In this document: positions 41,637-46,374 of the stretch, piece after piece
Position numbering within the stretch: the stretch's first letter is position 1
Layout of the letters: each line of letters opens with the position of its first letter
Origin: Salipiger bermudensis
GTDB taxonomy: Bacteria; Pseudomonadota; Alphaproteobacteria; Rhodobacterales; Rhodobacteraceae
Assembly: GCF_020171625.1 (NCBI RefSeq)
Contig: NZ_JAIUZY010000004.1
Span: 1 to 64,000 of the forward strand
DNA: 64,000 nt
Reading direction: 5' to 3'
Notes under the pieces: generated by a model
Database searches by the model: none
What the model was told of the DNA's origin: nothing
The model's input: the letters and a program-made list of their open reading frames with translations, nothing else
Made by a program: the position numbers and the translations under genes

Positions 41637-42599
41637 TCACGCAAACGCATGGCGGCTGCGGCCCTCGCGTTTGGCGGCGTAGAGCGCCGCGTCCGCCTGC
41701 GCCAGAAGCCCCGCGACACCGTCAGGCGATGGGCAGTCGGGATCGTGCAGGGAGATTCCGATGCTTGCCGAGACTTGGCAGGTGCCGCTCTCGATCGGAA
41801 CCGGCACCTCGATTCGTGCGATCAGCTGGCGCGCCAGATCCGACAACCGGTCGCGGTCGGTCAGACCCAGCGGCAGGATGACGAACTCGTCCCCGCCGAT
41901 CCGCGCCACGAGATCGTTCTTGCGCGTCAGGTCCAGCATCGTCCGCGCCACCACCTGCAGAACCCGGTCGCCGGCGGCATGGCCGCGGCTGTCGTTGACC
42001 TGCTTGAAATGATCGAGATCGAGATGCAGCACGGCGAACCGCTCGCCGCCGCGGATCAGCCGCTGCAGCAGGTGATCCAGAGCCCTGCGATTGCCCAGAC
42101 CGGTCAGGGGATCGGTGAAGGCGCGCTGCTCGGCGGCCTGCATCGCGCCCTGCAGGCGACGGTTGAGGGTGCGCGACGATTCCATCGCGGCGCTCTTGGC
42201 CTCGACCAGATAGAGCATGTCGATCGCAAGATCGGTGGCCGCGAAATCGCTGCTCGTGAGTGCATGGCGGCGCACCGCCTCGACCACGCCGATGCCGAAG
42301 GAGAGGTTGAGCACCGCCCCCCCGTGACCGTCGGGCATCGCCAGCCCCTTTAGGGCCAGCCCGGCACGACCGCGAAGGCGCAGCTGCAGCTTGCGCCCCG
42401 CGAGCGACAAAAGCTCCGGCACCGTGGAGACGGCGCGCGGGCGGTAGATCTCGACCAGCTGGGCAAAGGACGCGCCCTCCCCCTCTCCGGGGTCGAGAAC
42501 CTTGGCCAGCGTCGGACCAAGCGACACGACCTGCCCGTCCGGGCCGATTGCCATGTGCAGCGGCATCAGGGCCGCCATCGTCTCGGGCGGCAGGCTCAC
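41637..42599 (-). CDS. Diguanylate cyclase with HNOBA-type N-terminal domain
   Basis: A 320-residue protein that should make cyclic di-GMP. Residues 12-140 resemble the HNOB-associated domain (PLHMAIGPDGQVVSLGPTLA, IYRPRAVSTVPELLSLAGRK), then a short coiled coil and the GGDEF domain: GGDEF at 235-239 intact, metal-binding DLDHFKQVND, and the product-inhibition I-site RKND (RxxD, 226-229) five residues before it. GTG start overlaps the H-NOX-like gene stop (GTGA), so both are co-translated and probably interact. The cyclase looks catalytically competent, although its partner has lost the haem ligand. Confidence 0.87.
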   Translation of the reverse strand: MSLPPETMAALMPLHMAIGPDGQVVSLGPTLAKVLDPGEGEGASFAQLVEIYRPRAVSTVPELLSLAGRKLQLRLRGRAGLALKGLAMPDGHGGAVLNLSFGIGVVEAVRRHALTSSDFAATDLAIDMLYLVEAKSAAMESSRTLNRRLQGAMQAAEQRAFTDPLTGLGNRRALDHLLQRLIRGGERFAVLHLDLDHFKQVNDSRGHAAGDRVLQVVARTMLDLTRKNDLVARIGGDEFVILPLGLTDRDRLSDLARQLIARIEVPVPIESGTCQVSASIGISLHDPDCPSPDGVAGLLAQADAALYAAKREGRSRHAFA

Positions 42600-43210
42600 C
42601 CTCCTTTCACCTGGCGCGGCGGCGCGCCGCCCAGCTCGAAGCTGCGACCGGCCGCGAAATCCGTCTGCACCACGGTGATCTCGATCCGCTCGTGAGCCGC
42701 GCTTTCGCCGGCATGACCAAGCATGACCAGCGCGCCATAATCATCGGCCATCGCGCGCAGCACGCCGACCAGCACGTGCCCGAGGCCACGCGGATGGCTG
42801 CGGCGTGGCCTGCAGATCAGCTCGAACGCCCCGCCGTCCCGATCGCAGAGTTCAAGCTCGGGCAGATCGAGATCCGCCACCGCGAGCCGCGCCCTGCCCG
42901 GCAGATCCTCGAGCGAATGCAGGAAATCGATGAAGTCGATCCCGCCATAGCGCATCAGCCTGCGCAATCCCTCGTTGTTGGGATGGGTGATGAGGTAGGT
43001 GCCGATATCCTCGAGGATCGCATCGCCGGCTTTGTCAAGGCGCAGCACCGCAGCCTCCAGCACCCGCGCGACCGTTGCGGGCTCGTAATTGAGCATCGCC
43101 TCGAAGTCGGGGCTGTCGAGATCGGCGCGACGGGCAATCTCGGCCCAGGTGCCCGCCCCGTAGGTATCCTGCAGGAAACACTGAAGTGTCCGCGCCAGAA
43201 GCCCGTGCAT
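42596..43210 (-). CDS. H-NOX (haem-NO-binding) family protein lacking the haem ligand
   Basis: A 204-residue protein with the H-NOX fold pattern: MHGLLARTLQCFLQDTYGAGTW start, LEDIGTYLI helix, and the FIDFLHSLEDLP helix. In normal H-NOX the proximal histidine (near 102) sits where this protein has P104 (LEDLPGRARLAV), and the YxSxR propionate motif (near 131-135) is CxPxR (C133, P135, R137). Both key haem contacts are therefore changed, so haem and NO binding are doubtful; H98 is the only nearby alternative ligand. It is translationally coupled to the HNOBA-GGDEF gene, as active H-NOX/cyclase pairs are. Start at the MHGLLA methionine. Confidence 0.8.
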   Translation of the reverse strand: MHGLLARTLQCFLQDTYGAGTWAEIARRADLDSPDFEAMLNYEPATVARVLEAAVLRLDKAGDAILEDIGTYLITHPNNEGLRRLMRYGGIDFIDFLHSLEDLPGRARLAVADLDLPELELCDRDGGAFELICRPRRSHPRGLGHVLVGVLRAMADDYGALVMLGHAGESAAHERIEITVVQTDFAAGRSFELGGAPPRQVKGG

Positions 43211-43361: not shown

Positions 43362-44060
43362 TTAGCCTGCCATCAACCAGCCCGGCAAATGGCCGACATC
43401 CGGCAACACGACATCGGCAAGCGGCGCAAGCTGCTCGGCGCCGATCGGACCGGTCAGCACCGCCACGGTCTGCATCCCCGCGGCCCGCCCGGCGTTCAGA
43501 TCGTGCGGGCTGTCGCCGACCATGACCACCCGGTCCGGCGCAAGCCCCAGCCGGTCCGAGAACGCCAGCAGCGGCGCGGGATCGGGCTTGGCCCCGAAGC
43601 CGCTGTCGAACCCGGCGATGAAGTCGAACACGCCGCGAATCCCGACATGGTCGAGATGCGCATATGCGACGCTCTCGGCGTCGTTGGTCATCACGCCGAG
43701 CGCCAGCCCGAGCGCTTCGAGCTGCGCCATCAGCGGCACCAGAGGCGCGGCCTCCACCAGCGGCGCCTGGGCTCCGCTGCGCTCGAGATAGGCCTCGACC
43801 TCGGCGACGCTGCGTTCGGGCAGCACCGAGGCGAGACAGGCTGCAGCCTCGCGGTTGGTGCCGGCCACCACCGGGCTGTCCGCCCGGAAAGCCTGGCGTT
43901 CCAGATCGAACCGCGCGGCCTCTGCAAGCGCGTGGAGTGTCGCCTCGCTGCCCCCGGAGAGGTGTTGCAGCGCGGCCCACCCCCAGGCGTTCCATGTGGC
44001 TCCGAACTCGAACAGCGTGCCGTCCTTGTCGAACAGCACGGCATCGGCGCGCAGCTTCAT
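43362..44060 (-). CDS. HAD-superfamily phosphatase, phosphoglycolate phosphatase-like
   Basis: A 232-residue HAD hydrolase. Motif I is FDKDGTLFEFG, motif II GVMTNDAES, motif III K in GFGAKPDPAP, motif IV MVGDSPHDLNAGRAAG, a complete catalytic set with a cap domain between motifs I and II. Phosphoglycolate phosphatases and similar small-molecule phosphatases share this plan; the substrate is not determined. It overlaps the DUF3572 gene by 4 nt (ATGA) and precedes the H-NOX-like gene by 151 nt, all on one strand. Confidence 0.85.
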   Translation of the reverse strand: MKLRADAVLFDKDGTLFEFGATWNAWGWAALQHLSGGSEATLHALAEAARFDLERQAFRADSPVVAGTNREAAACLASVLPERSVAEVEAYLERSGAQAPLVEAAPLVPLMAQLEALGLALGVMTNDAESVAYAHLDHVGIRGVFDFIAGFDSGFGAKPDPAPLLAFSDRLGLAPDRVVMVGDSPHDLNAGRAAGMQTVAVLTGPIGAEQLAPLADVVLPDVGHLPGWLMAG

Positions 44061-44341
44061 GTCCAGTTCACCTCGCCACCGCCCGGCAGCATGGCGCGCG
44101 CCATGCGCGGGGTCTCGTAGGACAACGACTGCGCGTCGCAGAAGCCGGAGATCCAGGCGTCGTCCATGAGGATGAAATCGAGCACCGCGCCCTGAAACAC
44201 CGGGTCCTCGAGCGCCGCGCGGAAATCCTCCTGCGAGGCGCCGGTGGCGCCAAGAAACACCGGCAGAAGCTCGTCATTGGTGGCCAGCCAGGCCACCGCC
44301 TGAAGTCCGATCAGTTCAGCGCTGTCGCGGGAAAGTGCCAT
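44057..44341 (-). CDS. DUF3572 family protein
   Basis: A 94-residue protein of the alphaproteobacterial DUF3572 family. Recognisable are LIGLQAVAWLATNDELLPVFLGATG and ALEDPVFQGAVLDFILMDDAWISGFC. Function unknown. It overlaps the HAD phosphatase by 4 nt and is divergent from the PleD-like gene, which starts 110 nt away. Confidence 0.85.
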   Translation of the reverse strand: MALSRDSAELIGLQAVAWLATNDELLPVFLGATGASQEDFRAALEDPVFQGAVLDFILMDDAWISGFCDAQSLSYETPRMARAMLPGGGEVNWT

Positions 44342-44450
44342 GGGACGCCTACAATCCGAAAGAGATTATTAACCATTCTGCGGGAAGACTTCCCACATCA
44401 GGACGCTGGCGCCCCGGTTGCTTGCGTAGCGCATGGTGGAAAAGGCTGCA

Positions 44451-45863
44451 ATGACGGCAAAGGTGCTTATCGCCGATGGTTTCGCGACCCACCGCATCTC
44501 GCTGGCAGCGATGCTGGACCGGGCGTTCTATGATGTCATCGTCACCGAAAACGGCGCCGATGCGTTGCGCAGGATACGCGCGGAGCAGCCAGACCTCGTC
44601 ATCGCGTCGACGGCCCTGCCCGACATCGATCCGGCGCGGTTCTGCGAAAAGGCCCGGGCGTTCAAGGCCAGCGCGGAGATGCCCGTCATCCTGCTCGGCG
44701 GCGCGCCCTCGAGCGCCGAGCGCCTTGCCCTGCTCGCGGCGGGCGCCGACGATGTGCTGCCCGCCCCGGTCGACCGGCGCCTGCTTCTGGCGGGTCTGCG
44801 CAACCGGCTGCGCGCGCGCGCGGCCGACGCCGACCTGTCGCTGCGCGACGACACCGGACTGACGCTCGGGCTGGCCGAGGCGGCCGGCGCCGCGATCCAG
44901 CCGCCGGCGCGCGTGGCGCTGATCGAGATGTCGGCGGAGGGCGATATCTCCGTGGCGCTCGACAAGCTTCAAGCTCTCGTTCCGGACCGGGTCGAGTTGT
45001 TGACCGCCTCCGAGGCGCTGCGCGCCAGCGCCACCCCGCCCGAGGCCTTCATCATCGTCGAGAGCGGCCCGCAGCCGCGCGGCGGGCTCACGCTGCTGAC
45101 GCAGCTGCGCGCCAGCCCGAGCGTGCACAAGGCCGCTCTGCTCTATGTCGGAAGCGCAGCGCGGCTGAAACAGGCGGCGGCGGCGCTCGATCTTGGCGCC
45201 GACGACGTGCTCGTGGGGGCGCTCGATCCCGAGGAGCTGGCTCTACGCCTGCCGCGTCAGATCACGCGCAAACGCAACCACGACCGGCAAAGGGCCGACC
45301 TGCGGAACGGGGCCAAAGCGGCCCTGATCGACCCGCTGACCGGGCTTCTCAACCGCCGCTACGCGCTGCCTCACGTCGCGCGCCTGCTCGAGCGAGCCAA
45401 GGACCGACACCGCGGCTTTGCCGTGCTGCTGGCCGATCTCGACCGTTTCAAGGAGGTGAACGACCGCTTCGGCCACGCGGCCGGCGACGTGGTCCTGCGC
45501 GATGTCGCACGCCGCATGGGCAGCGTGCTGCGGCCGGGTGACCTGCTCGCGCGGATCGGCGGGGAGGAGTTCCTCGTCACCCTGCCCGACACAAGCGCCG
45601 GCGCTGCTCACGCCATCGGGCAACGGCTGCGCGCCTCGGTGGCGTCAGGCGGAGTCTGCGTGCCCGGAACCCGTGAGCATCCGCAGGTCACGCTGAGCAT
45701 CGGGGTCGCGCTGTCGGGAATCGGCGCGGCGATGGGGGTCGACGCGCTGCTCGACCGGGCAGACCGGGCGCTCTATGCCGCCAAGGATGCGGGGCGCGAC
45801 AGGGTCATGGCGTGGCACGACCCGCAGGAGGCGCCATGCCGCGCCGTCGGGGCCGGAAGATGA
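44451..45863 (+). CDS. pleD: PleD-type diguanylate cyclase with degenerate receiver domains
   Basis: A 470-residue protein with two receiver-like domains (about 1-120 and 152-268) and a C-terminal GGDEF domain. The cyclase is intact: GGEEF at 370-374, I-site RPGD at 361-364, DLDRFKEVND. The first receiver has S53 where PleD has its phospho-acceptor aspartate (PDLVIAS), A105 in place of the conserved lysine (DDVLPAP), and only one acidic residue in the pocket, so it is unlikely to be phosphorylated. The start at 44451 is supported by a GGAAAAGG motif over the earlier ATG at 44433. The domain order suits PleD family; regulation must differ from it. Confidence 0.85.
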   Translation: MTAKVLIADGFATHRISLAAMLDRAFYDVIVTENGADALRRIRAEQPDLVIASTALPDIDPARFCEKARAFKASAEMPVILLGGAPSSAERLALLAAGADDVLPAPVDRRLLLAGLRNRLRARAADADLSLRDDTGLTLGLAEAAGAAIQPPARVALIEMSAEGDISVALDKLQALVPDRVELLTASEALRASATPPEAFIIVESGPQPRGGLTLLTQLRASPSVHKAALLYVGSAARLKQAAAALDLGADDVLVGALDPEELALRLPRQITRKRNHDRQRADLRNGAKAALIDPLTGLLNRRYALPHVARLLERAKDRHRGFAVLLADLDRFKEVNDRFGHAAGDVVLRDVARRMGSVLRPGDLLARIGGEEFLVTLPDTSAGAAHAIGQRLRASVASGGVCVPGTREHPQVTLSIGVALSGIGAAMGVDALLDRADRALYAAKDAGRDRVMAWHDPQEAPCRAVGAGR

Positions 45864-45876
45864 GGCCGGCCCGGCC

Positions 45877-46374
45877 CTAGCGCTTGTGCTTGCGGATCCA
45901 CGCGCCGATCTCGTCGATCTTGACTTCGAGCCGCCGGGCATAGGCCTCGCGCTCTTCGGGCGAAAGCCTCGCGACATACTCGACCAGCATCTCCTGCCCT
46001 TCTTTCTGCCGGCGCTCGGCACGGGCGCCCTGCCGGTTCAGCGTGGCGGCAAAGGCGTCCTGATCGAAGGGCTCGGTCCGCAAGGTCTCGATCGCGGATC
46101 GGTACCCGGCGAGGAAATCGCCCGGTGCGCCGCGCTGCCCCTCGATCCGGTGGCGCAGCGCGCGGCCGAGGTCGCGGCGCTGATCCTCGTCGAGGGCGTG
46201 GGTGTAGGGGAAGACGAAATCGCGCCCGCGCGGCGGCCCGCCCCGCTCCATGTCGGGTCGGTTGAGATACAGCCCCGCCACCACGCCTGCGACCGCCAGG
46301 TTGGTGGCCAGAGAAGCAAACAGCACGATGCGCATCCCGAGGGTCATTTTCGGCTTTTTGGCGTCTTCGGTCAT
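45877..46374 (-). CDS. Periplasmic heavy-metal sensor, Metal_resist/CnrX-like
   Basis: A 165-residue protein anchored by one N-terminal membrane helix (about 14-38, MRIVLFASLATNLAVAGVVAGLYL) with a helical periplasmic domain (HALDEDQRRDLGRALRHRIE, RRQKEGQEMLVEYVARLSPEEREAYARR). This is the plan of the Metal_resist family, which includes CnrX, the metal sensor of the CnrYXH sigma-factor system. Methionine/histidine residues of CnrX are not clearly conserved, so the ligand may differ. Last gene of a unit with a sigma factor and probable anti-sigma factor, 3 nt after the latter. Confidence 0.75.
   Translation of the reverse strand: MTEDAKKPKMTLGMRIVLFASLATNLAVAGVVAGLYLNRPDMERGGPPRGRDFVFPYTHALDEDQRRDLGRALRHRIEGQRGAPGDFLAGYRSAIETLRTEPFDQDAFAATLNRQGARAERRQKEGQEMLVEYVARLSPEEREAYARRLEVKIDEIGAWIRKHKR

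What the first reader, a model, noticed from the sequence alone, without database searches (positions are those of the whole stretch)
42596..43210. H-NOX-like protein that has lost its haem ligand, coupled to an intact diguanylate cyclase
Seen: the protein has the H-NOX length and fold pattern, but the position of the proximal histidine is P104 and the YxSxR propionate motif is CxPxR (C133, P135, R137). It overlaps by GTGA the HNOBA-GGDEF gene, whose GGDEF and I-site are intact. Known: normal H-NOX/cyclase pairs link NO sensing to cyclic di-GMP. Inference: here the sensor has been turned to another signal, for example thiol redox state through C133 or a protein partner, or works without haem. 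A conserved ligandless H-NOX/cyclase pair would be a distinct signalling module.
Basis: partly seen in the sequence, partly recalled or inferred. Interest (0 to 1): 0.8.

Follow-up and report, generated by a model that had tools for sequence, protein, structure and literature searches.

The report
Haem-ligand-less H-NOX paired with cyclase
This is a bacterial gas-sensor-type protein that has lost the residue that holds its haem, sitting next to an enzyme that makes the signal molecule c-di-GMP; such pairs have already been described in this group of bacteria, but what they sense is still unknown.

Summary
The 204-aa protein at 42596-43210 (-) is an H-NOX (Pfam HNOB 65 bits; model TM 0.84 to Nostoc H-NOX). 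P104 sits in the proximal-histidine column and the YxSxR motif is gone. It overlaps by GTGA a cyclase gene with intact GGDEF and I-site.

It is not a freak, and not new. Of 151 distinct sequences of this type in my (not random) sample, 132 have Pro, 11 His and 8 another residue in that column; none has the motif tyrosine. All 161 loci examined carry the cyclase next door. Lee-Lopez & Yukl (2022) described this cluster as H-NOX 'group 5'; Kumar & Spiro (2017) noted the missing histidine in Paracoccus denitrificans.

The C133 redox idea is not supported (Cys in 93 of 151). Most likely, by inference, it is a pseudo-H-NOX that works without His-ligated haem as the regulatory partner, probably a brake, of its cyclase. 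By-product: Dinoroseobacter shibae H-NOX, for which NO sensing is reported, is one of the His-retaining minority, so that result should not be carried over to Pro members. A group-wide His2 (145 of 151) is a loose end.

The parts
42596..43210 (-). H-NOX (HNOB) protein of the ligand-less 'group 5' type, 204 aa; P104 in the proximal-His column, C133/P135 in the Y/S columns of YxSxR
42596..42599 (-). GTGA overlap: stop of the H-NOX gene and start of the cyclase gene
41637..42599 (-). Diguanylate cyclase, 320 aa: HNOBA (PAS-like) N-terminal part, long helix 121-160, GGDEF domain with GGDEF motif and RxxD I-site
42899..42901 (-). Codon of P104 (ligand column)
   Evidence: position computed from the 43210 start and read; residue

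Best explanation
The pair is a Rhodobacterales 'group 5' pseudo-H-NOX and its diguanylate cyclase. The H-NOX keeps the full fold, two glycines that I take for the hinges, and a set of group-specific conserved residues, but has lost the histidine that ligates haem and the motif that holds the haem propionates. It most likely acts without His-ligated haem as a dedicated protein partner that docks on the N-terminal/coiled-coil part of the cyclase and sets, probably lowers, c-di-GMP synthesis. Its trigger is not NO bound to a His-ligated haem; it may be constitutive, or respond to an unidentified ligand in the vacated pocket. Shown here by sequence or model: ligand loss, fold, gene pairing, purifying selection, intact cyclase motifs. 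Inferred: physical binding, absence of haem, direction of control (from P. denitrificans mutants in print).
For: Ligand column P in 132 of 151 distinct group sequences, motif Tyr in 0 of 151, against His in 34 of 34 canonical ones. A cyclase lies downstream on the same strand in 161 of 161 loci, with GGDEF 161/161 and RxxD 161/161. Columns of Nostoc G71 and G147 are Gly in 151 of 151 (that these are the hinges is recalled, conservation of the hinges in group 5 is stated in PMC8738867). Residues near-invariant in the group but rare in canonical H-NOX (E37, R83, R84, R106, R152, D157, L161, F191, L193) point to a conserved surface or core other than the ligand site. Model matches Nostoc H-NOX at TM 0.84 by target length, 0.76 by query. 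A P. denitrificans copy has Pro; in that species the hnoX mutant makes less biofilm and lacks BapA while dgcAB mutants overproduce, and NO still acts in hnoX and dgc mutants (PMC5588039). Precedent: sGC alpha H-NOX binds no haem and is called a pseudo-H-NOX (PMC8196705, passages).
Against: I found no haem-binding test of a Pro member in the papers searched, so absence of haem is not shown. The genome has a copper nitrite reductase, so NO may be made in the cell. A His-retaining member (D. shibae) is reported to act with NO (PMC8846402 and PMC7232146, passages), and 11 of 151 keep His, so haem binding need not be extinct in the group. Kumar & Spiro themselves proposed that NO works through H-NOX. 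In sGC the lack of His and motif was not the structural reason for missing haem; a plugged pocket was. Docking was not modelled.
Confidence: 0.6

Rival explanations
1. It still binds haem, through another ligand, and still senses NO. The best candidate ligand is His2 at the N-terminus.
For: His2 is in 145 of 151 group sequences and 0 of 34 canonical ones; Nostoc has Tyr2 there, which I recall lies near the haem. The 11 His members lack the motif Tyr too, yet one of them, D. shibae H-NOX, is reported to work with NO (PMC8846402, passages).
Against: His2 is equally common in the His-ligand members (10 of 11, against 127 of 132 Pro members), so it did not arise to replace the ligand. The motif Tyr is gone in all 151. 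No coordinates were available to inspect the pocket.
Confidence: 0.18
2. The vacated pocket binds a different small molecule (for example a lipid, another tetrapyrrole or a quinone) and reports it to the cyclase.
For: The fold, the two glycines (151 of 151) and Pro117 (150 of 151) are kept while the haem ligand is lost, as expected if a hinge-type sensor were retuned.
Against: No ligand evidence of any kind; the pocket could simply be filled, as in sGC alpha (PMC8196705, passages).
Confidence: 0.15
3. Thiol redox sensor through C133.
For: C133 in 20 of 20 genus members; redox activation of haem-free H-NOX is known for Vibrio cholerae, at a zinc site with Cys ligands (PMC8738867; PMC12329717, passages).
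Against: Cys in only 93 of 151; the next commonest Cys, C11, in 66 of 151; PMC8738867 says that group 5 lacks any conserved Cys.
Confidence: 0.04
4. A decaying relic of an NO sensor with no function.
For: Loss of cofactor residues.
Against: dN/dS 0.19-0.41; pairing with the cyclase in 161 of 161 loci; hnoX phenotype in P. denitrificans.
Confidence: 0.03

Closest known systems
H-NOX 'group 5' of Lee-Lopez & Yukl 2022 (PMC8738867), prototype Paracoccus denitrificans Pden_3719/Pden_3720
   Same: Pro in the ligand column, Gly kept, GGDEF gene overlapping next door. HAD and heavy-metal-resistance neighbours here are also in the figure's abbreviation list, which covers all five groups
   Different: Nothing of kind; 39.6% identity to the copy in P. 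denitrificans HAMBI_2443, which I take for the Pden_3719 ortholog
Dinoroseobacter shibae H-NOX/Dgc1 (Dshi_2815), reported to act with NO
   Same: Falls in the same group in my tree; cyclase gene next door according to print
   Different: Keeps His in the ligand column, as 11 of 151 do.
Canonical NO-sensing H-NOX with cyclase or kinase (Shewanella woodyi, Legionella, Nostoc Alr2278)
   Same: Fold; gene pairing with c-di-GMP enzymes in some (PMC8846402, passages)
   Different: Nostoc and the 34 canonical sequences collected have the His; the window protein does not
Soluble guanylate cyclase alpha-subunit pseudo-H-NOX
   Same: H-NOX fold without haem, with PAS, coiled-coil and cyclase domains (PMC8196705, passages)
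   Different: One chain there, separate gene here; cGMP versus c-di-GMP; its N-terminal pocket plug has no counterpart here if translation starts at 43210

Membership tests
HNOB / H-NOX domain family (Pfam PF07700) | Profile score over the curated cut-off and H-NOX fold | tested here: met
   65.3 vs 25.5 bits; TM 0.84 by target to 2o09
Haem-binding, NO-sensing H-NOX | Proximal histidine | tested here: not met
   P104 opposite Nostoc H105
Haem-binding, NO-sensing H-NOX | YxSxR propionate motif | tested here: not met
   C133-x-P135-x-R137; Tyr in 0 of 151 of the group
Haem-binding, NO-sensing H-NOX | Haem content and ferrous-NO complex | not testable with these tools
   needs purified protein
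H-NOX group 5 (Lee-Lopez & Yukl) | Ligand His mostly replaced by Pro, no conserved Cys, Gly hinges conserved, GGDEF neighbour | tested here: met
   132 P, 11 H of 151; commonest Cys column 93 of 151; Gly 151/151; cyclase 161/161. Their sequence network was not rerun
Active diguanylate cyclase | GGDEF motif and RxxD I-site | tested here: met
   activity itself not testable
HNOBA domain (Pfam PF07701) | Profile score over the curated cut-off | tested here: met
   only just: 23.7 vs 23.4 bits, over residues 2-63; 31 of 37 family cyclases match at E 0.01. No sGC chain is among the 50 fold matches shown

The most novel reading that the evidence does not exclude
Group-5 H-NOX proteins hold haem or a metal in a rearranged pocket through the group-specific His2, so that much of a bacterial order would sense NO or redox with a ligand set not known for H-NOX.
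Probability: 0.1. Interest if true: 0.75.

Novelty: new member of a known kind. Interest (0 to 1): 0.33.

Why it matters
HNOB genes occur in 296 of 394 sampled genomes of this family, and 140 of the 151 distinct group-5 sequences that I read lack the haem-ligating histidine. Two of the six plasmid-borne copies found carry the name 'heme NO-binding', so the annotation claims more than the sequence supports. How these proteins sense anything is an open question stated in print (PMC8738867). The survey makes it testable: the family holds natural His and Pro members side by side, and the one with NO biochemistry in print (D. shibae) is a His member.

Tried and rejected
H98 as the true ligand: rejected, it aligns with Nostoc E99, although His is there in 118 of 151.

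Fusions of H-NOX and cyclase: long open frames listed (G346, G253, G272, G389) turned out to be upstream stretches of the stop-to-stop frame, with the cyclase in a separate frame.

Covariation of ligand His with Trp in the motif-Ser column: 6 of 11 His members against 2 of 132 Pro members. The tree-based pairs test found one independent pair on supported branches, so it is not established.

Order of losses: the trees (95 rows; all 151 group rows) need at least 7 and 8 changes between His and not-His inside the group, and set the group apart from the canonical rows by 1 change. His members lie mainly on early branches in the drawn tree. Loss and regain cannot be told apart; both are one-base changes between the codons seen (CCN and CAY).

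Distribution: in 385 genomes of the class, 9 matched: 4 group-5 (the window's own included), 1 canonical of the same family and 4 outside the family, all 4 with His and YxSxR. At most 8 candidates a genome were scored and the profile was built from group 5, so misses are possible.

Not possible: the pocket in the model (no coordinates given), docking of the two proteins, reading Iyer 2003 (not held); Bedrunka 2018 was seen only through citing papers. The R. capsulatus and R. sphaeroides proteins were not read.

Fold search of the cyclase gives diguanylate cyclases; it does not by itself confirm a PAS fold for the first domain. The last 17 residues of the H-NOX model (188-204) have pLDDT under 50.

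Rows dropped: the structure alignment A1 holds P0001 and 49 of the 80 named loci. Of the 54 sequences first submitted I left out L134 (stop codon in the stated range) and, at the same time, L136, L143 and L151 as a precaution; the other named loci were left out from the start to thin near-duplicates. The cyclase alignment A2 holds P0002 and 36 of the 72 usable named loci. The first tree used every non-Pro row, every second Pro row and every fourth canonical row.

Full report
What is there. On the minus strand the window holds two overlapping genes: a 204-aa H-NOX protein (42596-43210) and a 320-aa cyclase (41637-42599), sharing GTGA. The organism is a Salipiger species or close kin: 20 of 20 genomes of the genus, the window's own included, have the protein (59-100% identity), and the nearest named record is Salipiger bermudensis HTCC2601 at 87%. 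The window's genome has one HNOB gene.

Ligand column. P104 falls opposite the proximal histidine of Nostoc H-NOX without a gap. In an alignment of 171 loci, 30 of 30 high-scoring HNOB proteins of the same family have His; 20 of 20 from the genus have Pro; of 40 lower-scoring ones from the family 29 have Pro, 6 His and 5 another residue; of the 80 closest named ones 77 have Pro, 2 His and 1 Ala. After adding 20 more family loci, 9 class-search loci, three plasmid copies and D. shibae (204 rows) and removing identical sequences, 185 distinct rows remained: 34 canonical (His in all) and 151 of the other type (132 P, 11 H, 3 R, 2 A, 1 E, 1 S, 1 N). This is a chosen sample: 60 family loci that I picked from the printed matches, the genus, and the 80 closest named loci; it is not a census. 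The motif tyrosine is absent in all 151, His members included.

Fold. AlphaFold with 50 sequences gives mean pLDDT 85.8 and matches Nostoc H-NOX at TM 0.84 by target, 0.76 by query, rmsd 2.6. The columns of Nostoc G71 and G147 are Gly in 151 of 151. The group has its own near-invariant residues that canonical proteins mostly lack, among them His2 (145 of 151 against 0 of 34), Glu37, Arg83, Arg84, Arg106, Arg152, Asp157, Leu161, Phe191 and Leu193. I did not search the literature for His2. Selection keeps the gene: dN/dS 0.19-0.41 against five relatives, and 0.08-0.40 for the cyclase.

The cyclase. GGDEF scores 137.8 bits and HNOBA just passes its cut-off (31 of 37 cyclases of the group match it). 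The model (pLDDT 89.5, pTM 0.62) shows a mixed first domain, a 40-residue helix and the GGDEF domain; the best solved matches are diguanylate cyclases. In 161 of 161 loci of the group (overlapping copies of some genomes included, the window itself counted twice) a cyclase of this kind lies downstream on the same strand, with GGDEF and RxxD in all; by extrapolated starts at least 105 of the 161 lie between 4 bases of overlap and 11 bases of gap (only the commonest spacings were printed). Of 30 canonical loci, 3 have such a cyclase next door and 27 show none within their shorter stretches of up to about 3.5 kb. The order PAS-like, coiled coil, cyclase resembles sGC with its H-NOX cut off as a separate gene; this comparison is mine.

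What is known. PMC8738867 (section 10 read in full) describes 'group 5', a very large cluster built from the P. denitrificans protein: fewer than 10% have the proximal His, most have Pro, no Cys is conserved, and how they sense is an open question. PMC5588039 (passages, section 9 in full) says that the P. denitrificans and R. [quoted passage not shown] its authors nevertheless suggest that NO works through H-NOX as well. A P. denitrificans copy (strain HAMBI_2443) has Pro. So the finding is a further member of a published kind.

A point that may be of use. PMC7232146 and PMC8846402 (passages) cite D. shibae H-NOX as an NO sensor that inhibits Dgc1, and PMC7232146 names the R. capsulatus homologue beside it; PMC6473078 (passages) speaks of one H-NOX gene that inhibits dgc1. 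The D. shibae genome (identified by a 5609-bp, 100% plasmid match) has one HNOB match, and that protein has His in the ligand column. It is therefore one of the minority and cannot stand for the Pro members. I did not see this remark in the passages that I read (searches); Bedrunka 2018 itself was not read.

How it most likely works. A pseudo-H-NOX without His-ligated haem, kept for its shape and its contacts with the cyclase, tunes c-di-GMP synthesis, probably as a brake given the opposite phenotypes of the hnoX and dgcAB mutants in P. denitrificans. Docking, sign and trigger are inferred. The window's genome also has a NirK-type nitrite reductase (519 bits) and one FIST-domain protein (FIST is the domain of NosP according to PMC8846402), so NO could be sensed elsewhere. 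C133 redox sensing is unlikely. A haem or metal site using His2 is the boldest reading not excluded, at about 0.1.

Noticed in passing
window 43362-46374: Next to the pair lie a HAD hydrolase, DUF3572, a PleD-like REC-GGDEF cyclase (44433-45863, +) and a Metal_resist protein. In the 80 named loci (at most about 8.6 kb each) a HAD match is found in 58, DUF3572 in 42, a strong PleD match in 7, Metal_resist in 14. P. denitrificans too is said to have these two types of cyclase, dgcA and dgcB.
   Followed up: partly
L205 (CP104104.1, Phaeobacter sp. G2, 120-kb plasmid): A block of a cyclase, DUF3572, HAD, trimethylamine methyltransferase, H-NOX and GGDEF cyclase lies on a plasmid.
   Followed up: no
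L207, L052, L054, L063, L076, L152: Six of 11 members that keep the ligand His have Trp in the motif-Ser column, against 2 of 132 Pro members; not supported by the tree-based test.
   Followed up: partly
G000:C11:137567-138118 (L208): A FIST-domain protein (386-aa frame), a candidate NosP-type NO sensor in the same genome.
   Followed up: no
genomes, such as G230, G218 and G345: Some genomes have two or three HNOB genes. In 18 genomes the printed list shows one copy over 100 bits and another under 100 bits, suggesting that a canonical and a group-5 type coexist there.
   Followed up: no
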